53,605 bases of DNA. Origin: a virus. This document shows, one piece after another, positions 6,248 through 36,200 of this stretch; within the stretch, counting starts at the first letter, position 1; every line of letters starts with the position of its first letter. The notes under the pieces are model-generated. The model was given only the letters and a program-made list of their open reading frames with translations. It was not told the DNA's origin and searched no databases. The stretch covers positions 1 through 53,605 of IMG/VR virus record IMGVR_UViG_3300009418_000023; one strand, given 5' to 3'. A program made the position numbers and the translations under genes.

Positions 6248-8689
6248 TTACGCAAAGAAATAATCTGATTGTAAAACTTCCTCAAGCATAAGCTTGCCCC
6301 GTGTTGGAACGTCGGGAAGTTTAATTCCTAATTGGTTTTCAACCTCCTTCTTGAAGTTTTCTAGTTGGTTTGTCTTATGAATCTTAACAAACTCTTCTCT
6401 TAGTAGGTTTCTCATATCATCTATATAATTAGCATGGCACCCGAAGGAATCATGAATCATACAGAGGTCTATTATACCACAGTCTATCAGTCTGTCAATA
6501 GTTAAAAACATATGAGCAGCATCTAAACTGTGTATAAAGTTAGGGGAGATAGCTTGTAAAGAATCACGCGGAGCCACATCATTTGTCTTAACATAGAATA
6601 TAAGTTCCTTCTTGTTAAACAGATGAGCAAGAGATCTCCTCTTCTGTTGTTTATTATACTGGTGAACTACTTTAAACCCACTGGGGGTTGTCCACTCAAC
6701 GTGTTTGTTAAGCTTGTTAGCTTCTTCAATAATAGATTTTAAATATTGTTTGCCTTTGTTTGGTCCACTTAATGAGCGGTCAAGGCTAGCTTTAATAGCT
6801 CGGGCCAGCTCAACAATAGCTGCACCCTTCTTCTCACGAGACACCCAGTCGAGGTGTCCCTCTTCTTTTAGGTATCTCTGTATTCCATAGAAAGTAAGAC
6901 CATACGGTTCACACATTGTGCTGCGCTTTGTTACCTTCCTATCAATTTTATTATCCCAAAACTCTAGAAACTCACGATACCAATCGTTGTCGCTACTAAA
7001 GTTAGTGCAATAATCAGTAGTAACATCAGCTACATACTGGTATAGATCGTGCGGTTCGTCTGAAGGAGTTACCCCAGTCAGCTTAGCAATATCAGTGTCG
7101 CCCATGATAGAAGACCAGTGTTGGTTGCCGTTACATTTACCATCGATCTGTACAGGTACATAACTCATACCATCTTTCCTAGTAATGTCAAAGATCATTG
7201 CCAATCTTTGGAAAGACTTGTTCTTCTTCTTGGAATCATCAATCCATTCTTTATTTCCATATGGATCTTGAGATATACGTTCAATCATGTCCCAGTTATC
7301 GTCAACCCATTGTATTCTTTTATCAAAGGATACTTTATCTTGGTCAAACAGGTTAGCTAGATATATTTTCTGCCAATACCTACCCCTCTCGGTTATCTTA
7401 ACACCATTAGCAAACCTAATCATCCCCCTATCTAGGTCAGATGATTGGGGGGACAGCAACTCACAGGTTGTGTATGCCCTGCCCCTGAAATCTAGGGTGT
7501 AGACATGATAGAAAAACCCCCAAGGAATAAGATTCTCAGCCAGCTGAAGACGTATTAACATCCTTCCGCGAGCTTGTTCTTGCTTATACCAATCACTCCA
7601 AGCTTCCTCTTGGCGTTGACACCAGATAGCCTGTTGTTCTTTTGACCCATCTTTAGGGTACTCCTCATTATACATGAATTCTTCGAACGAAAAGTAGGGT
7701 AGATTAGCTAGCCCAGTATTGTTCTTAAACAGGGATTCCATCACCTCTACTACTGGTTCATTGATAGACCACTCTGTTTTCATCATGTGATTCAAACCCT
7801 TAACAACCTTTAAAGAAGGGCTCGAAAATTTTTGGTCCCTTTTTTGGTCTCCAAAGAAATTAGATCTAAACTTCTGGACCATAGGTTTCCTTAGGTTGGT
7901 ATGTATATACCCACCTGTAGATATTGTAGTATGGTCTTCGGGGATAGACAACATAGGTCTATATATTAGTGTAGAGTTCTGAAGAACATCGTGTCTTTTG
8001 TGTAGCTCTCTAAGAACATCGGGATGAAACTCAACCGATAGAAATTTCTTATAAGAATTACCTCGTTTTATCATATGAGAAGTTAAGATAATTATATTAG
8101 AAGAGGCAGCTATCCTAAGCATGTTATGTCCGAAGTCATGCCTTTGTTTAATTGATAGCTTAACATTTTTGTCCATCTTATCGGCAAATGCACGGCATCT
8201 CTTAGGTGTCCAGTTCTTTATAAACTTAGATTGTCTTAACCAATCATCTCTGTTATCTTCCTTAGCTCTTTGGAACGCAATAATATCACAAGCGTCATGA
8301 GATATCTGTGTAGCTAAGGTTTGTGCTAGAGGGGGGATAACTTTATCCTTTTCCCACCTGTATCCCCAGAAGGTACTAGAGAACCAGCTTCTAATCACAG
8401 CTCTTATAGTTATGTCAGCCATCTTCTGCGGACCCAGCTCAAGTAAGGGGTACAACCATTGAGGTGACTTACTTGATTGACACACCCTATCAATCCACTC
8501 CTGAAACACTTCTCTTAGTTCTACAACAGAAGAATCAATAAGTTCTTGTTCAGGTATGCCCTCATCGGGAGCGCGCTCATAGTCTGACCAATATCTAGAC
8601 TTACCATACTCAAGCATCTCTTGTTCATACAAGATCTGCGAGTTCTTTCTCTCTAACTTAGCGTCATCAGTTAAGGTATCCCATTTCAT
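6248..8689 (-). CDS. T7-like single-subunit DNA-directed RNA polymerase
   Basis: An 813-residue phage RNA polymerase. Motifs in order: LDFRGRAYTT (the DxxGR motif) near residue 399, motif A PVQIDGKCNGNQHWSS with the catalytic Asp near 515, motif B KVTKRSTMCEPYGL near 588, then the HSLDAAHM helix and motif C IHDSFGCH near 746. The protein ends in DYFFA, close to the FAFA-like C-terminus of T7 RNAP that forms part of the active site. Length is slightly below T7 (883), mainly in the N-terminal promoter-recognition part. The ATG at 8689 overlaps the preceding gene stop. It should drive middle and late transcription of the whole minus strand. Confidence 0.97.
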   Translation of the reverse strand: MKWDTLTDDAKLERKNSQILYEQEMLEYGKSRYWSDYERAPDEGIPEQELIDSSVVELREVFQEWIDRVCQSSKSPQWLYPLLELGPQKMADITIRAVIRSWFSSTFWGYRWEKDKVIPPLAQTLATQISHDACDIIAFQRAKEDNRDDWLRQSKFIKNWTPKRCRAFADKMDKNVKLSIKQRHDFGHNMLRIAASSNIIILTSHMIKRGNSYKKFLSVEFHPDVLRELHKRHDVLQNSTLIYRPMLSIPEDHTTISTGGYIHTNLRKPMVQKFRSNFFGDQKRDQKFSSPSLKVVKGLNHMMKTEWSINEPVVEVMESLFKNNTGLANLPYFSFEEFMYNEEYPKDGSKEQQAIWCQRQEEAWSDWYKQEQARGRMLIRLQLAENLIPWGFFYHVYTLDFRGRAYTTCELLSPQSSDLDRGMIRFANGVKITERGRYWQKIYLANLFDQDKVSFDKRIQWVDDNWDMIERISQDPYGNKEWIDDSKKKNKSFQRLAMIFDITRKDGMSYVPVQIDGKCNGNQHWSSIMGDTDIAKLTGVTPSDEPHDLYQYVADVTTDYCTNFSSDNDWYREFLEFWDNKIDRKVTKRSTMCEPYGLTFYGIQRYLKEEGHLDWVSREKKGAAIVELARAIKASLDRSLSGPNKGKQYLKSIIEEANKLNKHVEWTTPSGFKVVHQYNKQQKRRSLAHLFNKKELIFYVKTNDVAPRDSLQAISPNFIHSLDAAHMFLTIDRLIDCGIIDLCMIHDSFGCHANYIDDMRNLLREEFVKIHKTNQLENFKKEVENQLGIKLPDVPTRGKLMLEEVLQSDYFFA

Positions 8690-11267: not shown

Positions 11268-11282
11268 TGTTGTTCTCCTTAA

Positions 11283-11356
11283 TAGCTCCGGTGGGACTCG
11301 AACCCACACTGTATGGATTTTAAGTCCACTGCCTCTGCCAATTGGGCTACGGAGCC
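11283..11356 (-). tRNA. tRNA with UAA anticodon (Leu by code), short variable loop
   Basis: Complete cloverleaf of 74 nt: acceptor GGCTCCG with CGGAGCT, T8-A9, D-loop AATTGGCA, anticodon stem GTGGA/TCCAT with loop CTTAAAA (anticodon TAA), five-nt variable loop ACAGT, T-arm GTGGG TTCGAGT CCCAC, discriminator A. No CCA encoded. By anticodon it reads UUA (Leu), but bacterial tRNA-Leu normally has a long variable arm, which is absent here. Confidence 0.9.
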
Positions 11357-11359
11357 AAA

Positions 11360-11432
11360 CACTCCGGGCAGGATTCGAACCTGCGACCCACGGTTTAGAA
11401 GACCGTTGCTCTGTCCCCTGAGCTACCGGAGC
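11360..11432 (-). tRNA. tRNA-Arg (UCU)
   Basis: Complete cloverleaf: acceptor GCTCCGG with CCGGAGT, D-loop with GG, anticodon stem ACGGT/ACCGT with loop CTTCTAA giving anticodon TCT, T-arm GCAGG TTCGAAT CCTGC, discriminator G, no CCA encoded. It reads AGA, a codon common in this AT-leaning phage but often rare in hosts. Three nt separate it from the next tRNA. Confidence 0.93.
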
Positions 11433-11436
11433 AGCA

Positions 11437-14849: not shown

Positions 14850-14869
14850 AACTGCTCCTTTGAAATAAA

Positions 14870-14894
14870 CTAGCCCCGTGGGAATCGAACCCAC
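14870..14894 (-). ncRNA. Orphan tRNA T-arm with acceptor 3' strand
   Basis: GTGGG TTCGATT CCCAC is a perfect T-arm, followed by GGGGCTA and G in the acceptor 3' position. No matching 5' acceptor strand and D-arm is found immediately upstream or downstream. Upstream, CTAAAAA followed by CTAAA could be an anticodon loop and 3' stem, but the partner TTTAG is not adjacent. It may be a tRNA 3' half whose 5' half is elsewhere, or a relic. It ends 21 nt before the next start codon. Confidence 0.55.
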
Positions 14895-14977
14895 TAGTCT
14901 TTAGTTTTTAGGCTCTACGTCACCCTACTTACCCTAGACACGTAGAATGTAGTCACCTCGACAGGGCATTAGATTGT

Positions 14978-15081
14978 TCCAGTGTATTACCAGTTATACT
15001 ACATACGCGACGCGCGTAGTACATTACATACTATATTTCGCCATATGAACGGGAGTCGAACCCGTATCTCTGGAATGTTAG
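14978..15081 (-). tRNA. Candidate permuted tRNA (3' half precedes 5' half), element B
   Basis: Reading the minus strand: loop-like CTAACAT (15081-15075), stem TCCAG (15074-15070), AGAT, T-arm ACGGG TTCGACT CCCGT (15065-15049), then TCATATG G. After a 32-nt linker comes GCGTATG (15008-15002), T8 A9, D-stem GTAT, loop AACTGGTA, ATAC, A, and stem CTGGA (14982-14978). CTGGA pairs fully with TCCAG, and CGTATG with CATATG. All tRNA parts are present but in permuted order. If joined at the anticodon stem the anticodon would be AAC; the joining mechanism is unknown. One extra T in the acceptor is unpaired. Confidence 0.6.
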
Positions 15082-15137
15082 AGTAGTTTAGTGTCATGAG
15101 GCTTATATTGCCTTCCCATAGAGTTACCGCTCTTACT
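15066..15137 (-). repeat. 70-nt RNA-like repeat, copy 1
   Basis: Starts TGTCCTGAGTAAGAG and ends CTAACATTC on the minus strand, nearly identical to the copy at 15838-15906. Paired elements are kept in both: GAGTA with TACTC enclosing AGAG/CTCT and AGGC/GCCT hairpins, the last with loop AATATAA. Differences fall mainly in loops, as for a selected RNA fold. It runs directly into the 3' half of permuted tRNA element B. Confidence 0.75.
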
Positions 15138-15445
15138 CAGGACAAGTATATCGACCCATCCCGAAGGTTCCCGCCAAGGGTAGTGGCGCTATCATTCCTT
15201 ATAAAGATGACACATTTGCTACTCTTGGCTGCATCTAAACCTCAACCTAGCCCCTTCAACCGTCCAACATTACTAGGCATGTCTATATAGTTCATAGTGC
15301 AGAGGATTAGGCTACACAACCGTCAGGGGTGGCTCAATTAGTCTCACTTGGCTAGCACAATGCAAGCCCTAATGATACATCACATGAAGCGGTCTATGGC
15401 AGGGTCATGACTCCCTACATCCCTTTGTTCTCACACGTGTAAAAA

Positions 15446-15524
15446 TGGAGGCGGGCGGAGTCGAACCGCCGTCTTCGAGAGTCCGACATGCGGAGTTCTC
15501 TCGAATCTAAACCAAATCACCCCC
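15446..15524 (-). ncRNA. tmRNA-like tRNA domain without mRNA-like region
   Basis: 79-nt element: 7-bp acceptor GGGGGTG / CGCCTCC with discriminator A, a D-region ATTTGGTTTAGA as in tmRNA 5' ends, a continuous 8-bp stem TTCGAGAG/CTCTCGAA in the P2 position closed by a short TCCG/CGGA hairpin, then GAC and T-arm GGCGG TTCGACT CCGCC, and a TTTTT run. The 5' GGGG-TGATTTGG and 3' CGCCTCCA ends match the tmRNA pattern, but the tag reading frame and pseudoknots are absent. It is not a regular tRNA, since no 7-nt anticodon loop with T33 can be drawn. Confidence 0.6.
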
Positions 15525-15536
15525 CATAACGCGGAA

Positions 15537-15622
15537 GCCAGCGTGCTACCAGTCATAACACTACTAGGCCCAAGGTGCGACCTTGGCGTAACCTAGACAG
15601 GATTCGAACCTGTTCTACTGGA
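15537..15622 (-). tRNA. Candidate permuted tRNA (3' half precedes 5' half), element A
   Basis: Reading the minus strand: TCCAG (15622-15618), TAGA, T-arm ACAGG TTCGAAT CCTGT (15613-15597), acceptor strand CTAGGTT (15596-15590), A; an 18-nt linker; then GGCCTAG (15570-15564), T8 A9, D-stem GTGT, loop TATGACTGGTA, GCAC, G, and CTGGC (15541-15537). GGCCTAG pairs with CTAGGTT over 7 bp (two G-U) and CTGG with CCAG over 4 bp. The linker is itself a hairpin (CCAAGGT CGC ACCTTGG). No ordinary 5' half with AACCTAG is present upstream. The anticodon depends on how the halves are joined. Confidence 0.65.
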
Positions 15623-15837
15623 CTCTCCTTGTTGATTGTTGACCGGCAGGATTCTCTATACCTGCAACCGAGAGATATCGTAAAGATATGGTCACCTCAG
15701 TACCAGCGTGATCCCAGTCAAGGGAATGCCCTAAACCACTTGGTCGTTGGGCAGACTACCACAGTCTACGCTTGTGCCTTAGGCTCCGATGTCAGAAGCC
15801 TTATTCAGCCACGGTCTACCCCCGTCGGGGTGTGTTG

Positions 15838-15906
15838 AATGTTGGAGTAGTTTCAAGTCATGAGGCTTATATTGCCTTACCATAGAGTTACACACTCTTA
15901 CTCAGG
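15838..15906 (-). repeat. 70-nt RNA-like repeat, copy 2
   Basis: Second copy of the element at 15066-15137, sharing the paired core and the AACATTC end. Here the hairpin AGAGT-GTGTA-ACTCT is one base pair longer. Downstream, instead of a T-arm, it is followed by an ACCCC/GGGGT hairpin in the equivalent place, so only copy 1 is linked to a tRNA half. Confidence 0.75.
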
Positions 15907-16046
15907 ACAGTGGTGATGCATCCCTCCCAATATTTATACAGGTAGGGAGAATCCCCTGTGATAGTTGTCTCCCCGCATCCTATAGATGCTACGAGGAATT
16001 CACAAGGCTCTCCGAAGATAGCCTATACCTCTCTAAAGGGAGAAAA

Positions 16047-16075
16047 GGTGTACCCCCGTTATCGAGGGGTACACC
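16047..16075 (-). terminator. Rho-independent terminator after the early-type block
   Basis: Minus-strand stem GGTGTACCCC / GGGGTACACC (10 bp) with a 9-nt loop, followed by TTTTCT. It sits 33 nt after the stop of the 92-residue gene and should end host-polymerase transcription before the structured-RNA block. Confidence 0.85.
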
Positions 16076-17491: not shown

Positions 17492-19324
17492 TCAGTCAAT
17501 CGTGTCGAGATGGTGCATACGAATCACTGGTGGGATCATCTCAGCAATCTCAGCGTATGATGGTCCACTCGGTGGCTCGACATCATTCGCTTCCCACAGA
17601 GGAGCCAACGTAGCCTCCATTGTGGGAATAATTCGCACCATGACATTACGAGCATTCTCAAAGAACCGCCCAACTCGACTTGGTTGAAGTAAGAAACCAT
17701 CATGGTTGTCAAGTTGATGCCAATCTTGACTTTTGTTTTCAAGATTGAGCTCACTGTTGAAGTACGAATCATATATCGCGGCGAGGTGACAGCTAATCGA
17801 TCCGAACATCTCAACCTCAAACGGTGTGTACGTTGCCTTGCCTTTCCTACCATTAACAGAACCCCTAACTGTACGCTCTGGTTCTGTTGTCAGGCGGCTA
17901 TAAGGCATGAAGGGAATTACTTGCCCATCACCACGAATCAACTCAATCATCTTGCCAGTGGTCTCGACGCAGTGCTCATTGGCATTACGTGAACGTTGTC
18001 CGAGAGATCTGATCTCCGGAATAACCTCATGCATAGCCGGAGCACCAACATTACGAACCCACTTCTTGGCCACATCATACAGCTCTTCATACGTAACTGC
18101 GGCACGGAGTGTGCCCTTCTTGGTGAAGAGATGTACGAAATCGGGGTGTGTGGGCACCCAACTCGGGTACTCAACATGGTCTAACAGGTAAACCCTGTCC
18201 TCTTGGTACAGCCGTTCCATCTTGTCTGGATCGAGACCCAAGAGGTGGGTTGCCATGACAGCAACACCAGCCTCATACTGTCCGCCTCGTGCCAACCGTT
18301 TGGCGGTAGTACGTAGCGAATCATCCAACTCAATATCATTATCCATGGAGTTGATCCACCGACACATCTCGATATATGCGTCTCGCCGTTTGCCTCCGAA
18401 GAGATTACCCAGCCGCATACCAGACATACTTTTCTCAATCAACGCCTGAAACAGCTGCCCCGAACAACCCTGATCAAACTCTGCCGCAAGGGTTGTCTTC
18501 CCAGTTTGGGCATACTCTTTGCACTTCAACGCCACGCGAACGAGGCCGTATCCGTACTTATCGATACACTGACTCACTGAGCCACAACTGAGAATTGCTT
18601 CCCAGTTGTTAGCGTGAAGACCTGCCATGCCATTCGTAATTGACCAGAACACATCTGGTGTACATTCTTCGGCATTAGCGAAATCAATAAGTCCCTTTGT
18701 ATGGCTCTCTGTTTGCCATCCACAGTTACTCATATGATTGTATCGCCTTCCACGCTTATCGATACGCCTTACTGTTGGGTAGAACACTGAGTCGCCTACT
18801 CGCTTCAGTTCTTCAGCTACAGTTTCGAAACGTTCTGCATAGGCTCCACCATCCTTCGAATGGAATGCATCTGATCCCATCCATCCTTCAAGAAGCTCCA
18901 TGCTGTAACGAAGCTGAGTATCAGAGGTCCACTGCATTGACTCTGTCATACGATCGCAGATCGGCATTACATTACTCGAACACCGAGTAACCTCAGGAGC
19001 CCAAAGGCCCGTCAGCTCTCGCCGTTCCGTCTGGATAATATGCTCTCGGTGTGGGTACTCTGTCTGTTGCTGCCCAATGTAGAACTTACAGCAACTCTTA
19101 GCAATCTCGTGTTGCTGATCGTCTTCATCAGGGAACTGACGCTGTAACTCTTTGAACTCCTGCGTTCCTTGCAGTTCCAGTTCTTGATGTGCAGGAATTA
19201 CTAAGCGATCCACAGCATCTGACCCATCCCAACTGGAGGGCTTAGCGTGATATAGCACACGCTTTACTAATTCCGAATCCCCCTCGACCAAAGGATTCAC
19301 TAGGGTTGTGTTATCATATTTCAT
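17492..19324 (-). CDS. Second, highly divergent single-subunit RNA polymerase
   Basis: Start set at the ATG at 19324 behind CACAGGAGTGTTTATC (610 aa). Motifs of the T7 RNA polymerase family occur in the right order and spacing: RIDKRGRRYN (DxxGR motif) near residue 186; AAEFDQGCSGQLFQAL, matching motif A VDGSCSGIQ, with the catalytic Asp near 281; RTTAKRLARGGQYEAG (motif B, R-x3-K and a Tyr) near 338; and NHDGFLL (motif C HDS-like) near 539. It is about 200 residues shorter than the 813-residue polymerase and shares little else with it. Located in the GC-richer early block. It could transcribe an early promoter class, prime replication, or act in the virion; a degenerate inactive copy is less likely since all acidic and basic catalytic residues remain. 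Confidence 0.75.
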   Translation of the reverse strand: MKYDNTTLVNPLVEGDSELVKRVLYHAKPSSWDGSDAVDRLVIPAHQELELQGTQEFKELQRQFPDEDDQQHEIAKSCCKFYIGQQQTEYPHREHIIQTERRELTGLWAPEVTRCSSNVMPICDRMTESMQWTSDTQLRYSMELLEGWMGSDAFHSKDGGAYAERFETVAEELKRVGDSVFYPTVRRIDKRGRRYNHMSNCGWQTESHTKGLIDFANAEECTPDVFWSITNGMAGLHANNWEAILSCGSVSQCIDKYGYGLVRVALKCKEYAQTGKTTLAAEFDQGCSGQLFQALIEKSMSGMRLGNLFGGKRRDAYIEMCRWINSMDNDIELDDSLRTTAKRLARGGQYEAGVAVMATHLLGLDPDKMERLYQEDRVYLLDHVEYPSWVPTHPDFVHLFTKKGTLRAAVTYEELYDVAKKWVRNVGAPAMHEVIPEIRSLGQRSRNANEHCVETTGKMIELIRGDGQVIPFMPYSRLTTEPERTVRGSVNGRKGKATYTPFEVEMFGSISCHLAAIYDSYFNSELNLENKSQDWHQLDNHDGFLLQPSRVGRFFENARNVMVRIIPTMEATLAPLWEANDVEPPSGPSYAEIAEMIPPVIRMHHLDTID

Positions 19325-19394
19325 GATAAACACTCCTGTGTGAGGGATTCTAAGGATGACAGTACAAACACTCATCCTATAAAAGTGTCAAAGG

Positions 19395-20851: not shown

Positions 20852-20987
20852 GACCATTGGCCTGTCTCATCAGTGCTGGGCGGCCAGTCCCAACAAACAC
20901 CATACTCCTCAACCATCGGCGGTTGAGGACGTAGGGGGTGTTTCGACTATTCATCCGCAGTCGAAGCGGTGTCGAGTGCGTCAGGGT

Positions 20988-21282: not shown

Positions 21283-24200
21283 CTAGTCGATTATTCCCGC
21301 ATCTCTATCGTACCTTCTTTGTTGTGCCTTACGTTCTCTATCCTCCCATTCGGGACTCCCCACAGGAGCTCCTACAAGGCTCTCAGGAGCTCGCTCAGGC
21401 CGCGTCTCTCGGATAGCCCCCACTATATCTCGTCTCATAGGACGCGGTGTGGGGGCAGCAGGAGCCTGTGAGGGGACGCTAGGAGCGGTTGTCTTAGGAG
21501 CCGGTGCAGGGGTTGCTGCAGGATTGGGATATTGCATCTTAGGAGTACCTGTAGCACCGGAGGGATTATACCCCTGAAGGAGTTGTTGTTGGATTGCTGG
21601 TGGGAGGTTTTCAAACTTAGGTTCCCACCCTAGTTCTCTAAGGATTTCTCGTAAGTCTGCGGCATATTGGGGTAAATTAGATGTCTCAGAAAAAGAACCA
21701 TAGGTTGCCCATTTTTTGTTTGATGATTTAGCACCCCTGCTCATTGAGTTGTTTTGCCTTTGCCACTCTTCGCCCATAGCGGAGAAGAATATAATCCTAG
21801 TTAAGGCATCGCCTATAACCGGAAGTGTTCTCGTTAGCATTATCATTGATGCCCAATCTGTATCTTTTTCATCATCTGTCCAGCCATCTATCAGCTTCTT
21901 AACATTATACAAGAAGGAGTTCATTGCACCCACTGGTACAAATCCAAAAGCTTCTCGGTGTGTGTTTGCGTAGATACCTACTACGGTTTCCATAAGCAAG
22001 CCTATATATCTACCAAAGTGTGGTAATCTAGCCATCATAAACAATGATTGTTTAACCGGGTCTTCTTCCCATCCCTCGATGATGTCTTCTACAGGATATC
22101 CTGCAGCTACAAGCAACAGTGACATATACAATGAATCAACCATAGCATATGAAACCCAATGAAGGGCGTTTCGTCTAAGGCTGAATCTTTGGTTTCTTCG
22201 TCCAATTTGCTGAGAAGCAAATAATACAGGATACCGCCTAAAGGTTTCAAAGATAAGATCCCAGCTACTATTGCCCGTAGCTGTATCAAAGGGATTAGGG
22301 TCGACTAAGATTTCATGGATATATCTTTTTTCTGCTCTTCTTAATCCTGAAATTATATCAAGGTATTGTTTGTATTCTGGATCTGTAGTAGCCCACTGAG
22401 GACCGCCTTCCCATGCCTCACCTTTATTCAAATTAGTTAATAATCCTCCTAAGCTGTAATACTCATCTCCCTTAGGACTGTTAACCATCTTAGCAAGGAT
22501 ATCTACATTATCGTTTGTCAGAACACCCTCATTCATTAAATACATAATGTTTGCTGCGTCTGTTCCGGGCAGGCCTACTCTTGACATTAACTTAGAAATA
22601 ATCTTACGCCCATCTACAGTATCCCATTCTTTAGGATCAACCTGCTTATGTAAACGCAAGAACTCTTTTAGCTTACTGCCATCTCCACCAACCGTAGCTT
22701 GCTGTAACCATCCTCTAAAGATCGTAGCTCGTGAGGTAGCAATCATTTGATGCAGTATTCCTGCAAGGTGCATATTACGCTCACCTAACCACTGAGGTAA
22801 CCTTTGATACCACTCCGACCTTACATCAATATCTGGCCGAGCATAGTCTGGTATCCGACCTTGGTTAAATATTCGGATAATCTCTGCCATATCTCTTGCA
22901 ACATTCTTTCTAATGTTAGGATCAAGTCCCATAAGAGGGGCAACGGCAGCCTTAATAAAACCACCCATACTACCTCGACCAAGTAGTTGATCAATCATAT
23001 TCATAGTATTCTCTACTACAAGCGTAGCCATAGTAAGGTTTGTGCCAAAGACAATTCTAACAACATCTGGAGCATATCTTGTAATAAAGTTTAGAGTTTC
23101 ATCGGCTGAGTCTCTATTACTTTCCTGTTTACCTAAAATAGTATTATACTTGATCTCTAATACACCCATTGCTTTAGTAAGTATATCACTGTCTTTAGCA
23201 CTTATACGACTACCGTCACTATTAAAAAGATTACCCATACCCAGTACATTCCTAAAGATACCTAACACATCGCCAGTAGTAGCCTTAATCCCATACTTAT
23301 CCATATACATAGATTGCTCTGCAATCCTCTGCCCAAGATGTTTCATGATACCATCTGAAATTGTTTCTGGCCCCCAGACAAGCATATCTGCAATCGCAGG
23401 ATTATTCATAACTTCGTGGACCGGAGGAATAGCCCAATCATTAGAGAAGTATATCTTTCGTCCAGCACCATTCATAATGTTTGCCACATGAACACTTACA
23501 GGACTGCTGATAGTAGGAGACTGCTGTCTTGCGGATTTTCCTTCAACGACCCCAAGAGTCGCAAGTCTGGAATCTATAGACTGACCTCTAAGTATATCTA
23601 GACGAGCTTGATTAGGTTTCTTTGCCTCAGCCCTATACTTACTCCACCAACCAGCGGTAATTCGTGTGTTTTCACTATTAAACCCCAAGTAGTCAGCACT
23701 AAACTTATTCTTTTTGTATCGCATATACCTCATAATTTGAGCTATAGCTGGTATAACATAGTTAACATAAGTATTGTGTTGTTCAATAGTAGAAGTTTTA
23801 TTTGTAAGTAAGCTACGGTATTCTTCATTTGTTTTAATACTTGCAAGTCTAGTTAGTGTGCTATCATAAGATGTGCTTCTTTCGCTCTGGCGTTGCCTCA
23901 TTAATTCGGCCATTGCCATAATTTCTTTCCAGAGTTGTGGGTTCTTAGTTTCTAACTCAGCTAACTCTTTTAGCCCTACTTCGGGATCAGCCAAATGAGG
24001 AAGCTCGCCCATTGCGTATAAAGTATAAGGACACATTCTTCTTGTTTTAAGATCTATATTCTGAGATTCCGTAACAATACGATCTCCAATAACCTTACCC
24101 ATTTCTTCTCTAAAGTTATTATAAACCGGCTGATCTTGTACCTTAGCATTCGCAAACATAAAAGGAATAGCTTCATCAAAAGCTCTATCCATAACACCTA

Positions 24201-27200
24201 CTTCGACCCCCATATGGTTTACAATACCTAGTAATGCAGCATAGTTAGTTACAATATTATCTGCTTCCTTTCTTAGCTCTGTGCTGTTTACAAGCAATGC
24301 ATCCGTGTACTCATACGCTTCTCCTGCCATTTGTTTTACTAACTTAGTCCACACTTCTTTAGCAAAGGTATCTCTTGTTTTCTCGTTTCCGGCAGTATTC
24401 CCTAATACCTGAGTTCTAAATCGAACGGTTGATTCAATAGGCCCAATAATATCATCGTAGACTCTTTCCATAGAGTTTCTAATCTCAGTAGATATTTGGT
24501 CAATCTGCTGAACAGAACCTAAGACATGGGGTATGCCATCCATATTACCCCAATGTCCTGCCATAGTACTCATTGAGTTGTCAATCATTGTTGATAACAT
24601 AACAAGTAAAGTAAAGGGAGAATTCCAAGTAGCACCGGATTCAGTACTACCAGTAGCAAGCATAGTCATAAACTGTTTTACTTTAGAACCAATACCACCC
24701 GGCCTGTTAAAGTAAGGAAGCTGCTGTATTGCCTTAGTAGCTTCAGCCATAAAGCGTCCGTCATTCCCCCGCATCATTTTAGTCATATCCATCAGTATCT
24801 GTGTAGCAAGAATCTGTTGATCATGAGGAGTACCTTCAACGAATATTCTCTTAACATCAAGAAGATCTGGACCATATGTTTCAACTGAGAAGTCCCCGCT
24901 TCTAACACTATATTGATTCTTAAGGTTTTCCCGACCTATAAGGAATTCACCTGTAGTAATACCAAGCGGTGTTATTTTATTACCGCCAAGAGTATCACGC
25001 CTATTCTCTAGCTGACCACGCTCCTTACTCAACTCCTCCCACTCCTTTTCAAACTTTCCGGATTCACTTTCAGGTGCCTCGGGAGTATAGAAGTTATGGT
25101 GTATAGCGTCCTCTAATTCACCCATTCTTCTCTTAACTTCATCAAGAGATTGTAGGGTAGCTAGTAATTCGTTCTCTGTATTCTCCACCGTAGATTGTTG
25201 TTGTGTTCCTTCTGTAGACATATACAGCGGTCCCATATCAGGGTTACCTACATCAGCTATCGTATTTCTACTTGTCTTGGTTGCATCCTGTCCTAGAGTT
25301 CTTCTGATTAAGTTAATGGCTCTTTCGTATTCAGCTGGCTCGGTTGATTTAAAATCTGAGAATACAGAAGATACTCTATCTAATATCTTACCAATAAAGG
25401 CAAAGATTTTATCAATTATGGTTTGTGTCTTTGCAAAGAATCCCGCTTCTTCGGAAGTTAGAGGAGTATTGGCTTCAACCTGCCTTAGTAATTCTAAGGA
25501 ATCGTGTACTAAATGATACCCTGTCAGGGCCGCAATAAACTCTTCGCCCGTAGTATCGTTCATAATTCTAGCATACTCATCTTGAGCAGCCTTATTCCAC
25601 TGGCCGTTATGGAAAGCCATAACAAGTTTCTTCAGTGTTCCGCCACCCTGTTTACTCCGCTCGCGTAAGAATAACGTTCTCCACTCTCTATAGTGGTATG
25701 AATCATTCTCGATAAACATCATTCTACCAATATGGCCAATCTCCTCAGCCACTAAATACGCCACACTTAATGCATCTCTTCGCCCAACTAATTGATTACC
25801 AATTCTAATTGTATACCTACCACCTGATTTTTCTGCGGATCCTCTTCGCTGTTTCCCAGAATTATCAACCCACTCACTATCTAAGAATTCAAAATTAACC
25901 TCAAGAACCATATCAGGAGCATACTTAAACCACTTACCAAGAATTGCTCTTATCATTCTAGCTTGAGCCTCAGAAAGGCGACCACCGTCAACAGCCTCTT
26001 TTATCTTAAGGGATAGTTTACCCAACTCAGGAACAGCAGATGAGAAGTTATCGTGATTTCGAAGATCTCTGCTTTTAAGATGCAGCTCATTAAATAAATC
26101 CGGATCTCTATCAAACACATGAGTATCTAATACAGAAGCTAATGCCGCCTCTGCTGAAGAATGCATCTCGGTAGACATATCTTCAATATCATATATCTCC
26201 TGCAGATAAGCAAGGAAGTCAATAGTAATATCGGAATCACCAGAAACAGTACGTTCTCCCTCGCTAATCTGATCTACGTATGATCTAGCATCCCAATAAA
26301 AATCATTAAACTGTTGACTATCGGTTGCATTTAGGATTGACATAAGCTGATTAAACTCACCCTTAACTCTAAGGTAAGCACTAGAAACATCAGCATCAAA
26401 CTTTTCTTTTTCTGCCGCTGTTTCTCGTGACATCAGGGGGAAGAATACTCTAACCTCGCCCATCTCAATATCGGGTTGCCGTAACATAAGCCCAAGTATA
26501 ATAGCTCGTATGGTTGCTGGGTTTTTAATATTCCCATCAGTTAGTTGTAGTGTAGTTACAAGGAGTTCTTGAATAGTTCTATGCTCAAGATCAACCCCAT
26601 CTGTATACACATCCATATAAGATTCTCTAACCCCAGTTAGATCATGAATAAGACTCAACCCTCTTGAGTTAGCTTGTGAGTGAGGGCTACTATGTTCCAT
26701 TTCTATATTCCAAGTTGGAACAATAGTTTTAAAGGTTGTCTTTGCTTTTCCTTTTACCGTCCCTCGGAACGGTCCTTCAGAGGCAGCCTCAATATCAACC
26801 GGCGTTGTTCGTCTAACTAATTCCTTTAGAATTTTTTCGTTAAACTCTGCATCTTCTGAAATATATTTGTTATATAGATCCATAGATGCTTCCGGCGATC
26901 TTTCATTTATCTCCGCAATTTTTCTTCTAATTGCGTCTGCCTGTATAGGAGATCCAGAACGCTCAAAAGCTAAACTCAAATCTTTCTCGGTAACCACTAC
27001 TGGTTCACCATTAACTCGCGTGCCTCTCTTTTTTAAGGCAGCAGCAAACATACCCTCTTCACTCTTCTCACCGAGTTTTAATCCTTTAAGCAAACTATTT
27101 AAAGTCCAGTTTAGACTTTGTGTAATGTCACCACCTAAAAACTTAGAATCAGCGAGCATGTTGTTTTGCATTAAGTCAATACTAAGTTCAGCAACTATCT

Positions 27201-30200
27201 GCGCAGTATTAAGATCATTAGCAAGGATACCTAACTTTCTAAGGTCAAAACTATTTCCATTATAAGTAACTACCTTGCCTCCCGCTAACAAATGCTGCTT
27301 CAACATCTTTAATAAAGCTCTAGCTTCACTTCCGCTTACTGAACGAGTAGGCGAGAAATGCTTACCCTTTTTAAACCCCACTCTTCCTGCTGCTTCAAGT
27401 GTTCTTTCAACACCACCAATACCTACAATACGTTGTTCCAAGTCCATCGTAGTTTCAATATCAATAGATATAACATTATCTGTATCGTATATCCAATTAG
27501 GGTTGCTTTGGATTTCAATAATATTAGCTGCTTCAGCTTCATCTAAACCTAGCGATGTTAAGATTTCTACTGCTTTGGTAGGATTATGTTGAGACCACAT
27601 AGTTCTTTCTGGTGCAGCCCTAGCCATAATATTCATCTCAAGCAAACCTAAACTAGATAGTCTCTTCATAGCTGTAGTAATTGGAGAGATTAAAGACTCA
27701 ATAAAGAAGGGTAATGCATTAGGTCTAAGTCCAGCATCTGGTCTATAATAATTAATCCAGTCTACAACTCTAGGTTTAATATTACCAGATGAACGAGAAC
27801 CATCAACAAGCATATGAGCAACGGTGTGTCCTGATTCAACACGATCTACTATAATCTCCATTGCTTCACTTAAGACTCTTTCTCTGTTCATCTTTTCAGT
27901 TTCACTGTAGCCGAAGTAATCAGCCATCTCTTCAGCATCAGATCGAACTAACTCAGGCTTACCTTCGGCATTAGATCGATAGCGACCTGTTGGCTTGTTG
28001 GTACGCATCGCGGTTTCTATTCTTTCGATAAAAGGATAGTTCTTATGTGACGAAAGCATCAGTAAAGCACCCATTGGTGTAATACCGAGTTTCATGTTTG
28101 TTCCGATTACCGTTCTTGGAACTCTCATAAGCATAGTAAAGGGGCCACCCATAGGATTACGTAAAATCATTTTATCAGTACGTTCATCCTTCGTTGGCTG
28201 CTGCTGTATTAACTTAACAAGGTCATTTCTACCCTCAACACTCTCTACAATAAAATCAAAGGAGAATACAGGATCATTTGCTAGTACAGCTTTCTCTCTA
28301 GCTACATTAATAATAGCTTCTCTGTGATCTGGAGGAATAGCGTTAAAGGATTGTATATCTCTTTGATTAGCAATAACTCTTAATTGTTTCTTTAGTGCGG
28401 GCTCCTTAACAATACCTATATATGTTTCTATAGCTTCAGATATATACCCATCCCACAGTACTCCTACAAGAAACTCCAACTCATCCACAGACTGAACAAG
28501 TAAGGGATGTATGGCCGTCTCTTCTAGTTTAATTGTTTCGCCCGGATTAACCCCCTCTTCAATTATAAAGTGCTCTGTAGGAACTAAGCTTTTTTTCAAA
28601 GCTTTGTGAATAAGGGTTGGTCCGGATAAGACAGAGAATGGATTATTCTCCGAATATGGACTTGTCAGGATATCATATAGCGTTCTATCTGCTAAGTCTG
28701 GATTTAAAATACCAATTTCATGTCCCTTAGTTTCCATAAGTAAGGAAGACATCTCTTTGTATCTAATATCCCGAGATAATTGGAACAGCGCGTGGAATCC
28801 TTCGAGGTATGTATTACGGGCTTGTAGTAGTTTCTCTTCGTTAGTTAGTCCTTTATCTCCATAGCGTACAGCAGAAATGATCTGGTCCATTTCATGTTCA
28901 AGTTTTTGATCAAACCTATATACTAAATACAAGTACGGTACCATTTCTGGATCAAGCATCTCTGCCTCAAAGCCACGTTCTATTGCCCACTTACTCATCT
29001 TCATCTCAACAACATTAGCTACCATCTCAGGTGCATTAGCATCTAATCCCATAAGATAGTCTAGATAATCAGACTTAACATCTGGACCCATTGGAAGAGT
29101 TTCTCTATTCCAAGGTTTCTCGAATCCTCTACTAGTTACTGGAATTAAGTGATCAGGGTTTTCTAAGGGTTGGTCTAACATAGCCGATACTTCTTCAATA
29201 GGACTCATCATCTCTCGTTCAGCGGCATGATAAGCTTTATTCTGAAGGTATAGGTTGCCCTTATTGTGATAAGGCATTCTCCTAGTTTCAGGAGCCCAAG
29301 ACATGTATCCCCTTGGTTTGTCTGTAGACTCGAATACCATATCTTCTGTATCGTGTCGTAGTTCTGTCATTGTATGTTCTGCGGACCCTCTGAAGGTCAT
29401 AGGATGTCCTGCGACTGGGACCAGTAAACCTATACCCTTAGAGAAATAATCTATGCTTGCTTGGTTTCGAGAACCATCAGCATTCCTAACACTATCTTGT
29501 TGTAGTCTTTGCGCATTAGTATGATCTATAGCAGCTTCTTGAGAATGCTCCCACCACTGACTCAATACTTCGGCTTCGAGTTCATCCATATTATCTTCAG
29601 CTTTATATTTTGACAGAGGCGGCTTCTCGGGTTCTGTAACTCTAAGAAGCATTTCATTTCTCATCATAAGAACAGCAATAGTATGATCCATTCTCTTGTG
29701 CCACTCCGCTACTTCAGCGTCATTATCAAAATCAACCATTCTCATTATGGGGTTGCCATATTTATCTAACCTTACCTTCCCATTTTTATCCCTAACCGGA
29801 ATCTTTTGATGAGGATTATCTTCCATTCTCCACTGACCCAACGGAGATTCGCCTTCTACGTCTACAAATACTTGCTTACCGTTTACATATTCGTAGGGAT
29901 TTTCAGACCACTCCATGATCTTTCTACCAATCTTAGCAGGGTTATCCCAATCTTCATCTCTAATCTCTTCTGCTACGAAACTTTTAAACGCATCTTGATT
30001 AGTTTGGATTCTAGCAAACATCGTGTTGTGATGGTGTCTATTCATATTAGAACTTGCAGAATAGGTTCTATAACTCTCAAGACCGGGTAAGAAGATTTGA
30101 TACAGAATAAAGTTCTGAATTCCAAGAAGATCTTCTTCATTAAATCTCTGGTGATTAGTTGCTGCTTGTGCCTTTAATACATCTACAGCAACTCTGAACC

Positions 30201-33200
30201 CCGTAGAGTTTACTGTATTTAATGCTCTGAATAATTGATTATGTTTCCAGTGCATACCCTTTGGTTGCAGTAATTGGCCAACCTCTTCCCTTTCAGCTAA
30301 AGTTAGCTTTCCTCCTTCTCCCGGCTTTGCCCTAGCATCTGCTTTCCTAATGATTGCGTCAGCTTTCATCAACCTACTATTCTTATACTTCTCCTTAAAT
30401 GCTTCTACAGTCATCTGAACTCTTTCGCCATCCGGTCCTATCATCATCTCACGCTTAGCTAACATAGCAATATTTAGATCCAGTTGTCGGCGTAAATAAT
30501 CTCTTTTCATAGCGGGGTTATTTTGATCTGTTTTCTTAATCTCCTTGTTCCGCATACTCTTTACAGTTGAAATCCAATCTGTTATATGCCTATCTGTCAT
30601 GTTTTCGTGCATTGACAGAATTTTTCTTGCTTCTTCCCGAAGACCCTCAATACCCAAAGCTACATCAATAACAGCAGCGTTCTCACCCGCTATATGGTCA
30701 AATATAGAATGTCCAAACAAAGCCATAACATGTGATATACCTTCAGATTGATCCTTAAAATTAAAACCAAACTCTTGCCTCAGCCTAGTCAGGATACCTA
30801 CAAACATTGGATCGGTTTGTAGTTCTACCCAGCCTTTCCATCCCATAGTATATAGCCTACGCATAACTTCTGGTTTCCAGAATTCACGCATCAGCTTCAT
30901 CTTCCTAACCATATCAGGATCAGAGCCTTCATTACTAACGTAATCAGTATACTTAGTATGATCATCGATTCCCAACGTAGCTAACTGATCATAAAACGTA
31001 ACCATTGGAGAGAGAAGTTCGCCATATTCTGGGTGTGCTAAAGCCTTTCTTCTAACGGTTTCAGCAAAACCTAAACCAGCTCTGATATAATAATCTTCAG
31101 CCTCAATAGACATATTCATTTTATTCCTTAACTCACCCATAGCGGTAATAGCTGCTTCGCTACCGAGACTTAGAATCTTAGTTACAAATAAACCATTAAA
31201 CTTCTTATCCAAGTAAGTCTTTGGTGAAAGGATCCTTTTATAGAACTCTGGGTTTTCCCAATACTTTGGCCCAAACTCTTTATAATGTTCTTTTGCATAG
31301 GCTTGTTCTGCTTCGGTAGCCTGTTGAATAACATCATTGGCTAATCCTTCTAAGTGCATGTTCATGCTTTCTAAAGCAAGTATAGAAGAAATACCACTCA
31401 TTGGAACAATAGTAGGTAAGCCTGTAGTAAGCTCAGGGTGTATCATTTTAAAAGCTGCATCACCCTCTGAAGTATAGACTAACCCCGGACCAGCCGCCCA
31501 ACGAGCATCATGGAGGAAAGCATAAGCAATATTTGCTGTATCTAATAGAACCTCAGAAAGAATATTCTTAAGTTCTTCTCTAGTAGTAATTCTATCGTTT
31601 AGTCTTACATTAATAATAGGAGGCAATAACCTAGCATCTGGTTGAAGACTTCTAGAAACAGGTCTACCCGGCACAGCACCATCTTTATCTTCTAGATAAG
31701 CGTTGTATTCTATAATATCGTTCTCATCAATCTCTTCTGTAAAGATAAACTCTAATCGTTTCCTTACAATAGCATCTTCAATCACAAGAGCAACAGCCTC
31801 AGGTCGTTCTGGAGCAAAGGAAGTCATGTGTCCCCGTAACATCGGGTGTGTCCGGACTGTCTCTCCTTCTTGCGGCTCATCAAAACGATTCTCTTCTTTT
31901 CTTTCTGATCTATATTCTGGGGATTTTCGTCTCTTGGTAACTATTTCTTTAGTTTTTAGTCTGGTTACTAAAGCAAAGTCAACCAGTTCCCAACCAAGCC
32001 GTCTTGCTGGTTGCCAGCCCCGAGTACCGTCCCCCATACTAATGATCTCGTCTCTAGTAATTAGGGTGTGTTCATTATCACCCTCTGCAAGCCTATCAAG
32101 AATTATACTAGCTATTCTATCTAGGTCTTTTAAGTCTTCTGGAATCTTAAAGTAAGCATATATATCTTTCTTCTGTCTTTGAGATTGCATAAAGAGTACT
32201 TCTAATTGCTCAACTATACCCTTTCTAACCTCCTCAAGATATTTCATCTCTGCTTCTGCTCTTGATTCCGGATCATCTAGATCAAAGGTAATTGTTTGGT
32301 CAAGATCGGGAGAAAGATTATCTGTTAAATCAATTAGGAAACCATACTGATTAAACAAATCATCATCGACTGCTCTCGACGCTTTCATAAGTCTATCGGT
32401 AAACGCAATGGCAGTATATAACCCAATCTTAGATTTAGGATCTCTATCATAAACCATAACATCTTCTTCTGTAGCCCTAGTTTCAGCATTCTTTGCTATT
32501 ACTGCCTGATGTGCCGTGTCTCGTTTTTTGATAAAGGTTACTAATCCTTCATCCCCCTTGAAGTCATGCAACAGACTTTTTAAAAGGTTCTTAGGAAATC
32601 CACCTTCCCCTGCTAAAGTAAGGGCTCGAACATCCTGTACAAACCCCCAATCTGTTAGATCTGGGCTAACGAGAGTCTTCCCTTCAGCTTCAAGGCGGTT
32701 ATTGATGCCCGAGATATATCTAAATAATCCTAACTGACCTTCTTCTGACTCGAAAGCCTTAAAGAGTTTGTGTATAATTTGCCTTGCTTCTAGTTCGTTA
32801 ATACGGCCATCCTGAAGTGCCGTCCTAATTTCTGCAACCCATGAATTAGCTTCGTGGATTCTCCACTTCTCCCCCTTTTCCTCAATCCTCTGAAGAACCT
32901 TTTGAACCTTTGCATCACCTTCTTTCGCTACAAGTCTCCGTCCTCTAATGCGGCGAACTAAGTCTGTGAGAGACTCTTTTGAGATTGCTTTAAGATCACC
33001 ATTAGCTCTCATTATTCTACGAGTAACTAAGGCAATAAGTTTATCTAATCTAACAAACAAAGTATCATACTCAAGACTCAAATCTTCCATCGTTCTGTTA
33101 CTAGGAAACTCCTCGCCTTCTGCATTAACAATAACTTCTCTAAAGACTGCATCATAGATACCATCTGGGAGACAACTATCAACAACGAAGATTGGAACCA

Positions 33201-36200
33201 ATCCTACTTCAGGATCTAAGGCTCTACCCCACGGTCCTTCAAGTACAGATATTAATTGCGAATGAAACTCTTGAAGTGCCATCAACTCTTCTGCTAATGT
33301 AAATGCATACTCTTCAGGAACTATTCCTCTATCTATACTTTCTTTGTTTATCGCGGTTTTGTTTGCAGCTTCAGTATTAGTTCGATCAATAGCTGGAGCT
33401 TCTGTAGCTTGGTTAATCCCCCACTGAGAAGCAGTAATTGGCCTGTTACTTACACGACTCCAATTAACATCTTTGAAGTAGTTCCTCTTAATAGACTTTA
33501 TATATGTCTCTCGTTCTTTAGCAGCCTCTTCAAATATAGCTAATGCTTCTTCCTTACTATAAACAATTGGATCCTCATCGCTATCTGCTCTCTCATCTAT
33601 TTCTTTCTTAACCCTGTCTTTGGTAGCACTTTCAGGTAAGAACGCTCCTAATAAGTCTTCAGCAGAAATAGTCTCTGTGGTTTCGAGTTTCTTTGTTAAT
33701 ACATGTCTTCGTATTGTTAAAGTCTTTAGTTCTTTATTACGATAATCTAATACTGCCCTGATTGTTTTCAGCTGATAAGACGCAAAACCATATTTCCTAG
33801 CCATATCTAGTTTGTATCTTAAGGATATCTTTTCACGCTTTCTATCTAACCTCTTCATATCCTCTTCTAATTTCTCCAATTGTCTATATTCATCTGAAGG
33901 TTGAATTACCTTAGTAAATATTTCATTCTGCATTCCAATAAGACCCAAAGCTAATGCTCTTAAGTCATCAAGCTTAACCCGCCCACTCTTTATACCTTCT
34001 AGGAGACTAGCTTTATTTTTTTCATTACTCTTTATAGTTTCCCATGTCTGTACAGCCTCTTCAAGATCGGCCCATTCTTCAGGAGAAACATCATTCTTAT
34101 CCATTTCCCCCTTTTGTCTCCACTTTGGGTGTTTCCCTGCTTCTGCTTCTGCCGCAATCGTATCAACAAAGGTTTTACTTAAGGTGCCAACTACTAGAGA
34201 AAGTTTAGATATCCTTTTACCCTTTTCACCTACATACTTTGTATCAATAGCATCTCGTATCTCTTTAACCTTTTCAGTTAACTCACCGATCTCCTTCTTT
34301 ACGTCTCTTAAAGCTTCACTATCGGATTCAACATCCTGCCACGCAGCAATACTTTCATCAAACTCGGAGATTAACTCGTCCATTTCAGCAATAAGTTCGT
34401 CAAGTTTATTCCTTATTTTTGGATCGGTAGTTCCTTCTCGTTCTTCTTCAAGAGCTGCCTTAAGGCTTTCAGCTTCCTCTTTCTCTTTTGTTGTTTGGAC
34501 AACTGCGGATTGTTGCTCTCCTTCTTGTGCTCTAAGACTATCTATCCTAGCGTTTACAAGACCCTCCCCCTCAAGATCTTTCTTTCGCCATGCTTCCTCT
34601 TCTTCAGTTAGTTTTTTGTCGGCAATAATCTTCTTAGCAATACGATCAGAAATCTCCCAGTCAGTCTCTGGAACCTTATCAGTTACCTCCTTGATCTCAG
34701 CATCAATCTTTTTAATAGCTACAGTAAGTTGCCTAACTGTTTCCTTCTTACTTGCAAAATCTTCAAGTTCAAACAACTCTTCTACCGTAGTAACTTTTTC
34801 TCTGTCTATCTCAACTTTTTCCATACCCTTTTTTCTCTTGTGAGATATTTTACCAGTCTTAGAGTGCTTCCAATAAAAACCCATACGAAATATTTCACCA
34901 GCAAAGGATTCTACTATACCGGTAATTTGTGCTTGTATCTTACCCTTCCTCTCAACTTTATCTTGTATCCCCGCCATTGCCTTTTCTCGTTCAGCTTGAG
35001 CTACTCCAGCCTCCTTTAGTCTCTTGGCTCTTTTTCTCGCCGCCCTCATTAGGCTAACCTTACGTCTAAGTGTAGACGGTTTTTTTGGAGCTAGCTGTGG
35101 TGACTCCTTTATCTGTTTTTTAATAATACGGTCTACTGCTTCTTTATGCTCATTATATATCTTCTCTTCTTCCTTAGTTAATGTCACATCACCTCTTTTT
35201 TTAATAGCAATATCAACTAAGACAGAATCTTCCTCCTCCTCCTTCGCTTGAATTAAAGAGTCAACATCTTCAGCCTTTTGTTTAAGTCTTTCTAACTCTG
35301 TTGTATTAGCCTCTAAAGAAAGTTTAAGTTTCTCTTCCTTTTCTCTAAATTTTTCCTCAACCTCAACCTCAATATCATGAACTACTTTAAGCTTTTCTGC
35401 AGCTGTGGCTGTATCAAAATTAAGTCCTTCTTTATCCATCCTCACACGAACCATACTCTCTACATTATCATCAACATATATTTCCCAAAGATCTTCATCA
35501 GAAATTTCATCTGTTTGATTAAGCCACTCCTCTGGGGTAAAGTTAGTTCCGTTTTCCTCATTCAACTTACGTACATATCTTGCCACCCGAAGCCTAGTTT
35601 TTGCTATAGCTGTACGTTCTCCTAGTTGTTTAGCTAAAGTCTGGGCTTCTGGTCCTCCTAATCTTTGAATTAGTCTATTAGCAATCTCATCTAGAAGTAC
35701 ATCATCAGATATCTTCTCCCCATCCAAATCATTTTTAATTTCTTCTAACAGACTAAGAATACTGGTTACATCATCATATGTATTAACCCCGTCTCTGATC
35801 TGCCAAGGATCAAGAACAAAACCAAGAGGTCCATCCATTAAATCATTTAAGTCAATATCTCCACCTTCTTGTCGAATAGAGTTTAAGGAATCAACGACTG
35901 AATCACCTAACTCATAATGCTCTATAGCTGCTAAGATAGGATTATCACTACCCCTTGCGGCTGCCTTCCAAGCTTCTGTAATACTAGACCTAAGTCTAGC
36001 ACCAAGTGGAAGACTCATAATACCTTGACCAATTATACCACCAGCTGCTGAAAGAGGAGCGTTTACTGTATACTTCATAGCTGTTCCAAGGATTGGGTTT
36101 GCTACGACAGAGAACACAGCCTCCATCTTTGCTTCAGCCCAGATACCACCTAAATCATACTCATCAATAAACCCTCTTTTAATTTTCAAAGTTTGGTTTA

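What the first reader, a model, noticed from the sequence alone, without database searches (positions are those of the whole stretch)
15537..15622. Permuted tRNA gene, element A
The T-arm plus acceptor 3' strand comes first and the acceptor 5' strand plus D-arm comes 18 nt later, on the same strand. Acceptor pairing is 7 bp (GGCCTAG/CTAGGTT, two G-U), the D-arm is canonical (T8 A9, GTGT/GCAC, GG in loop), and CTGG pairs with CCAG in the anticodon stem at the right distances. Permuted tRNAs are known in some algae and archaea, where the linked precursor is cut at the acceptor and joined in the anticodon or another loop. A phage example would need a joining route; group I intron-like permuted intron-exon circularisation is one idea, because GGAGAGTCC directly upstream resembles a group I P7 strand, but I could not fold a full intron core.
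Basis: partly seen in the sequence, partly recalled or inferred. Interest (0 to 1): 0.9.

Follow-up and report, generated by a model that had tools for sequence, protein, structure and literature searches.

The report
Phage RNA that mimics permuted tRNA
A marine phage makes small RNAs that fold like a tRNA cut open at the anticodon and closed at the amino-acid end; they look like relatives of bacterial Y RNAs (tRNA mimics) rather than tRNA genes, but this phage lacks the protein that such RNAs normally bind.

Summary
All tRNA stems pair, and no equally good element arises in 126.7 Mb of shuffled window. A second copy (B, 15074-14978) has compensatory changes.

'Permuted tRNA gene' is not the best reading. 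The layout is that of the tRNA-mimic module of bacterial Y RNAs (Rfam YrlA). A covariance model built only from nine other phages' modules (eight from Ro60-encoding phages) finds both A and B (E 1e-7, 2.6e-9). The acceptor arm is closed by a helix and encodes no CCA, and no anticodon loop works for both copies.

It is not a standard Y RNA either. Overlapping contigs close the phage genome at about 67.5 kb. It encodes no detectable Ro60, RtcB or RNA_ligase-family ligase, and both copies lack the Ro60-site motif seen beside Ro60-linked modules. The modules sit in an RNA cluster with manA RNA, a tmRNA-like domain without a message, and a repeat (X).

Side result: over 100 other phage modules of this fold carry an ACAGCAA motif and a closing stem. 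Only 1 of 25 large contigs of that set encodes Ro60. The function (tRNA decoy or protein scaffold) is inferred.

The parts
15537..15622 (-). Element A: YrlA-like (permuted-tRNA-shaped) module
   Evidence: 20/21 pairs; RF02553 alignment 15.5 bits over the whole module; model R2 31.3 bits E 1e-7; minimum-energy fold identical
15597..15613 (-). A: T-arm ACAGG-TTCGAAT-CCTGT
   Evidence: 5/5 pairs
15570..15596 (-). A: acceptor 3' strand CTAGGTT (15596-15590) and hairpin CCAAGGT-CGC-ACCTTGG (15586-15570) that closes the acceptor arm
   Evidence: no CCA after CTAGGTT
15564..15570 (-). A: acceptor 5' strand GGCCTAG
   Evidence: pairs 7/7 with 15596-15590
15543..15561 (-). A: D-arm GTGT-TATGACTGGTA-GCAC
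   Evidence: 4/4 pairs, GG in loop
15533..15628 (-). A: extended closing stem at the anticodon position, GGA/AG/CCAG on the 5' side with CTGG/CT/TCC on the 3' side
   Evidence: fold
14978..15074 (-). Element B: second YrlA-like module; closing stem TCCAG/CTGGA, T-arm 15065-15049, acceptor arm CATAT(G)GCGA 15047-15038 with TCGCGTATG 15010-15002, D-arm 14999-14984
   Evidence: model R2 36.4 bits E 2.6e-9, no broken pair in the alignment
15636..15831 (-). manA RNA (RF01745), directly 5' of A
   Evidence: 79 bits, E 1.6e-18; adjacency to a permuted module not seen in 118 other manA loci
15443..15524 (-). tmRNA-like tRNA-like domain without message part (82 nt, G3-U70), directly 3' of A
   Evidence: RF00023 51 bits against gathering 47; fold z -2.8
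15837..15915 (-). Repeat element X, copy 1 (before manA and A)
   Evidence: 90-91% identical to copy 2
15073..15150 (-). Repeat element X, copy 2 (abuts B)
14865..14905 (-). Element C: isolated T-arm with acceptor-like 3' strand (GTGGG-TTCGATT-CCCAC-GGGGCTA); 5' partner not identified
   Evidence: model R2 22.8 bits, mostly the T-arm
16047..16075 (-). Intrinsic terminator-like hairpin upstream of the RNA cluster

Best explanation
A, and its paralogue B, are tRNA-mimic modules of the kind found in bacterial Y RNAs (YrlA type). They are not tRNA genes whose halves are joined. The RNA is transcribed from the minus strand in a cluster of structured RNAs. It folds with a T-arm and D-arm as in tRNA, an acceptor arm closed by a helix and loop, and RNA ends paired through a stem in the anticodon position (shown by sequence, fold and covariation). 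Proteins that recognise the tRNA elbow could bind it, but it cannot be charged or decode (inferred). The phage encodes no detectable Ro60 and neither copy has the Ro60-site motif of its relatives. It therefore most likely works without a phage Ro60, as a decoy or scaffold for tRNA-binding proteins during infection (for example tRNA-targeting defence enzymes or modification enzymes) or, less likely, with a host Ro60/Rsr (inferred).
For: The architecture matches RF02553 along the whole module; other phage modules give 26-30 bits. Nine modules from other phages (eight of them Ro60-encoding) show 17 of 21 pairs with changes on both sides, 0/500 shuffles, and collapse when slid. Model R2 built from those nine finds B (36.4 bits, E 2.6e-9) and A (31.3 bits, E 1e-7) with at most one broken pair, and blindly finds modules in Ro60 phages Sparky and Sixama (58.2 and 55.6 bits). 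Modules lie within about 0.3 kb upstream of Ro60 in Cashline, JayJay and Trina, and 2.0-2.8 kb upstream in Blueeyedbeauty, Forrest and Big4 (annotations). The acceptor is closed: NCCA in 15/152 linkers against CCA at 69% of ordinary tRNAs. Compensatory changes separate A and B. The phage genome closes at about 67.5 kb and has no TROVE, RtcB or RNA_ligase match.
Against: RF02553 itself scores A only 15.5 bits (gathering 69) and does not list B. The known partner (Ro60) and its site motif are missing. Model R2 also gives 46 bits to a mispaired tandem tRNA-Arg/Leu, so its score alone does not prove the fold; the pairing does. B's unconstrained fold is weak (z -1.0). Across phage modules the 7 nt before the 39-43 strand carry an anticodon-loop signature (U33, R37, A38), which fits descent from, or mimicry of, tRNAs. 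Decoy function is not tested.
Confidence: 0.72

Rival explanations
1. A true permuted tRNA gene: the precursor is cut at the acceptor by tRNA 5' and 3' processing enzymes and its ends are joined in the anticodon region, giving a working tRNA.
For: Perfect acceptor, T and D arms; U8-A9 and GG in the D-loop; the U33/R37/A38 signature before the 39-43 strand in many phage modules; joined B would have a 5-bp stem and loop CTAACAT.
Against: Acceptor arm closed and without CCA; no junction that works for both A and B; no RtcB or RNA_ligase-family ligase in the phage; N73 agrees with the implied anticodon only weakly across 116 modules (38 against 29.9 expected, 351/10000); the same fold is an established non-tRNA.
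Confidence: 0.08
2. A two-piece tRNA: as in permuted tmRNA, the acceptor linker is removed and the halves stay together by base pairing without ligation.
For: Permuted two-piece tmRNA is a precedent (Rfam has RF04321); the paired flanks would hold the pieces together.
Against: The linker forms a 7-bp hairpin stacked on the acceptor; no CCA; no anticodon loop in A.
Confidence: 0.05
3. A canonical Y RNA bound by a host Ro60/Rsr.
For: Same module as Ro60-linked phage RNAs.
Against: The Ro60-site motif (G-CCGA...CGGTTAYC) found upstream of Ro60-linked modules is absent at A and B; no phage Ro60; host unknown.
Confidence: 0.1
4. A decaying relic of a tRNA array, without function.
For: Isolated T-arm C and other fragments in the region; related contigs are near-identical, so selection cannot be measured in this lineage.
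Against: Two copies keep all stems through compensatory changes; the fold is conserved across many phages.
Confidence: 0.05
5. A permuted group I intron-exon unit that makes a circular tRNA.
Against: No group I match at any threshold tried; the upstream RNA is manA, which has its own family and no tRNA link in 118 other loci.
Confidence: 0.01

Closest known systems
YrlA / bacterial Y RNA tRNA-like module (Rfam RF02553; Chen et al. 2014 RNA, cited in PMC7790460)
   Same: Order T-arm, closed acceptor arm, D-arm; ends paired at the anticodon position; elbow nucleotides of tRNA
   Different: No Ro60 gene in the phage, no Ro60-site motif at A or B, long hairpin in the acceptor arm, two copies with repeat X, neighbours manA and a tmRNA-like domain; RF02553 score far below gathering
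Phage Ro60-linked Y RNAs (modules near 'Ro-like RNA binding protein' genes in Mycobacterium, Gordonia, Streptomyces and other phages)
   Same: Same module; Trina's D-arm GTGT-ACTGGATA-GCAC is close to A's
   Different: Those carry the GGTTATC-type motif and lie near Ro60
Permuted tRNA genes of red and green algae and some archaea (from general knowledge)
   Same: Gene order of the two tRNA halves
   Different: No bulge-helix-bulge or other joining signal identified, no CCA, no working anticodon loop in A
Permuted two-piece tmRNA (RF04321) and tmRNA (RF00023)
   Same: Reversed order of acceptor strands with an intervening segment
   Different: A has a canonical D-stem and no message part; the tmRNA-like match here is the neighbouring element, in normal order

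Membership tests
Bacterial Y RNA, YrlA type | tRNA-like module: T-arm, closed acceptor arm, D-arm, in this order | tested here: met
   all helices present, aligned to RF02553 and found by model R2
Bacterial Y RNA, YrlA type | RNA ends paired in a stem at the anticodon position | tested here: met
   GGA/AG/CCAG with CTGG/CT/TCC in A; TTCCAG/CTGGAA in B
Bacterial Y RNA, YrlA type | Rfam RF02553 at or above its gathering score | tested here: not met
   15.5 bits against 69; a phage module with Ro60 also falls short (28.1 bits for L021), so the cut-off is strict
Bacterial Y RNA, YrlA type | Ro60/Rsr (TROVE, PF05731) encoded nearby or in the genome | tested here: not met
   none in G000 or G005, which together cover the closed genome
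Bacterial Y RNA, YrlA type | Ro60-binding motif in the stem | tested here: not met
   motif upstream of Ro60-linked modules, not at A or B
Bacterial Y RNA, YrlA type | Binds Ro60 or carries tRNA modifications | not testable with these tools
   needs biochemistry
Permuted tRNA gene | 3' half precedes 5' half with pairing acceptor, T, D and anticodon stems | tested here: met
Permuted tRNA gene | Joined molecule has a 7-nt anticodon loop with U33 and purine 37 | tested here: not met
   A: 3'-side heptamer AGGAGAG has no U33; 5'-side reading needs a C-U mismatch at 31-39. B: CTAACAT has U33 but anticodon AAC
Permuted tRNA gene | Acceptor ends can be freed and carry or receive CCA | tested here: inconclusive
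   no CCA encoded and arm closed by a hairpin; CCA could be added after cutting
Permuted tRNA gene | Mature joined tRNA in cells | not testable with these tools
   no RNA data
Group I intron (permuted intron-exon) | Conserved group I core | tested here: not met
   no RF00028 match

The most novel reading that the evidence does not exclude
A and B belong to a large, uncharacterised group of phage permuted-tRNA-like RNAs that work without Ro60. Over 100 further members carry an ACAGCAA motif, a 7-10-bp closing stem and anticodon-loop-like heptamers. These act as decoys for tRNA-targeting host enzymes, or some are processed into real tRNAs by an unknown joining route.
Probability: 0.35. Interest if true: 0.85.

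Novelty: new variant of a known kind. Interest (0 to 1): 0.6.

Why it matters
Permuted tRNA geometry was thought rare outside some algae and archaea. Here it appears as a common phage RNA fold that standard tRNA finders and Rfam thresholds miss. Copies without Ro60 suggest that the tRNA-mimic part of Y RNAs has a use of its own in phage infection. This can be tested directly, for example as a decoy for anticodon nucleases or tRNA-modifying enzymes.

Tried and rejected
Group I permuted intron-exon unit: no Rfam support. manA as part of the mechanism: 118 other manA loci have no T-arm or permuted module downstream. Tandem ordinary tRNAs as a false source of 'permuted' hits: controlled by excluding ARAGORN overlaps; in the window the Arg-Leu pair scores 46 bits but breaks acceptor pairs. 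ORF 17492-19375 as Ro60: no TROVE or other Pfam match. Model R1 was built with a wrong structure string and discarded. ARAGORN on halves joined in silico was uninformative: 146/152 against 94% for random loops. A genome-contig scan with a phage Ro60 found no relatives. blastn of the region in named phages: no match; two ACAGCAA-class RNAs: no match. The element X pattern was found only in the near-identical contigs and one unrelated chance hit (L047).

Full report
Observation. A finder that demands T-arm, acceptor 3' strand, linker, acceptor 5' strand, U8, D-arm with GG and a stem at the anticodon position scores it 20 of 21 pairs. Over 2,364 dinucleotide shuffles of the whole window (126.7 Mb) no hit reached 20 and ten reached 19. 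The unconstrained minimum-energy fold is this exact shape (z -2.75). A second element, B, was found at 15074-14978. Compared with A it has both-side changes in 4 of 5 inner acceptor pairs, one T pair and one D pair. The fold is therefore real and maintained.

Surroundings. On the minus strand, after a terminator-like hairpin (16075-16047), come: repeat X1 (15915-15837), manA RNA (15831-15636, 79 bits), A, a tmRNA-like domain of only 82 nt (15524-15443, 51 bits, above gathering), about 290 nt without assignment, repeat X2 (15150-15073), B, and an isolated T-arm C. X2 abuts B. X1 is separated from A by manA, so an X-plus-module unit may have been duplicated, with manA inserted in one copy (inference). 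Ordinary tRNA-Leu and tRNA-Arg lie elsewhere, at 11282-11433. Three other IMG/VR contigs carry the region at 99.9% identity; no named phage matches.

What it is. Weak Rfam matches to YrlA (RF02553) on permuted modules of other phages gave the lead. On A itself RF02553 aligns along the whole module with 15.5 bits. From general knowledge (Chen et al. 2014, cited in PMC7790460), YrlA is the tRNA-mimic part of bacterial Y RNAs that bind Ro60/Rsr. Two phages with such modules, L021 and L037, encode Ro60. tblastn with one of these Ro60 proteins matched 358 phage records. In eleven Ro60 phage regions fetched, permuted modules lie upstream of Ro60 in six: within about 0.3 kb in Cashline, JayJay and Trina, and 2.0-2.8 kb away in the others. 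A conserved G-CCGA...GGTTATC-type motif lies just 5' of them. Nine non-window modules show strong covariation: 91% of cells paired, 17 of 21 pairs with both-side changes, 0/500 shuffles, lost when the structure is slid. In that alignment the acceptor hairpin loops were trimmed by hand and the structure was given, not predicted; eight of the nine modules come from Ro60 phages and one (L043) from a contig without Ro60. The model built from it finds B at 36.4 bits (E 2.6e-9) and A at 31.3 bits (E 1e-7), and unseen modules in Sparky and Sixama. E-values from these models are rough. The same model gives 46 bits to a tandem tRNA pair whose acceptors do not pair, so pairing, not score, is the argument.

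Why not a tRNA gene. The acceptor arm of A continues into a 7-bp hairpin; B's arm continues into four more pairs after a bulge and has an extra base next to the T-stem. Neither encodes CCA. In 152 phage modules only 15 linkers begin NCCA, while 69% of 1,193 ordinary tRNAs in the same loci have CCA. A has no U33-bearing loop on its 3' side; B's only candidate has anticodon AAC. No phage RtcB or RNA_ligase-family protein was found. However, across phage modules the heptamer before the 39-43 strand shows U33 (55-70%), R37 (75-87%) and A38 (70-80%), and some carry a full anticodon arm (16 of 118 with 5 pairs, all with U33; shuffled expectation about 2%). The modules may thus descend from tRNAs or copy the anticodon arm. 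The discriminator base agrees with the implied anticodon only weakly (38 of 116 against 29.9, with register chosen adaptively).

Why not a standard Y RNA. One contig (G005) runs off the window's start and re-enters at its end, so the genome is circularly permuted and about 67.5 kb long (53,605 plus 13,904). G000 and G005 together cover it. No TROVE protein was found and A and B lack the Ro60-site motif. A host Ro60 is possible.

Mechanism. Shown: sequence, fold, covariation, paralogy, absence of Ro60 and of the ligases searched. Inferred: transcription as one cluster, release of the pieces by tRNA-type processing, recognition by tRNA-binding proteins, and a decoy or scaffold role. PMC7790460 reports that no YrlA fragments were detected when the Salmonella anticodon nuclease cut tRNAs, and suggests YrlA could inhibit it competitively; this is the nearest published precedent for a decoy that I found.

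Wider result. Permuted modules are common in phages. Of 33 contigs tested, 14 encode Ro60 above cut-off; by my reading of the flanks these are mostly the ones with the Y-type motif. A second set carries ACAGCAA and a 7-10-bp closing stem around the module (118 non-redundant; the search pattern itself required CAGCAA, so the motif's frequency is not independent evidence). Only 1 of 25 large contigs of that set (94-413 kb) encodes Ro60 and 3 encode RtcB. This looks like an undescribed RNA class, but the literature available here is partial.

Limits. No RNA data; relatives of A and B themselves are near-identical only; Chen et al. 2014 and two reviews of bacterial Y RNAs were not readable here; the host is unknown.

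Noticed in passing
L043 1605-1674 (-), L234 1155-1223, L248 11261-11329, L357 1937-2006 (-) and over 100 others: Permuted tRNA-like modules with ACAGCAA and a 7-10-bp closing stem (for example TAGGATACAT...ATGTATCCTG), many with anticodon-loop-like heptamers, in tRNA-rich phages up to 413 kb; 24 of 25 large contigs lack Ro60. Possibly a new RNA class.
   Followed up: partly
window 15443-15524 (-): tmRNA tRNA-like domain without tag frame or pseudoknots (82 nt, G3-U70, 51 bits to RF00023): a message-less tmRNA mimic, next to A.
   Followed up: partly
window 15837-15915 and 15073-15150 (-): Repeat X, two copies 90-91% identical, each before a module; no Rfam match; folds no better than shuffles; function unknown.
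   Followed up: partly
window 15636-15831 (-): manA RNA outside a T4-like cyanophage, inside a tRNA-mimic cluster. In S-CREM1 manA also lies between tRNA genes.
   Followed up: partly
window 20856-20948 (-): Type II hammerhead ribozyme match (39 bits, gathering 37) between the giant gene and the RNA region.
   Followed up: no
window 14865-14905 (-): Isolated T-arm with acceptor-like strand GGGGCTA just before the ribosome-binding site of the next gene; partner strand not found.
   Followed up: no
window 17492-19375 (-): 627-aa protein without Pfam, PHROG or PDB match; by eye it has motifs like single-subunit RNA polymerases (CSG..., HDGF), besides the clear RNA polymerase at 6248-8689.
   Followed up: partly
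window 21283-37362 (-): Giant 5,359-aa protein in a T7-like podovirus whose genome closes at about 67.5 kb.
   Followed up: no
L063 2649-2857: In Rhodococcus phage Trina a 'tRNA-OTHER' pseudogene annotation overlaps the Y RNA region upstream of Ro60.
   Followed up: partly
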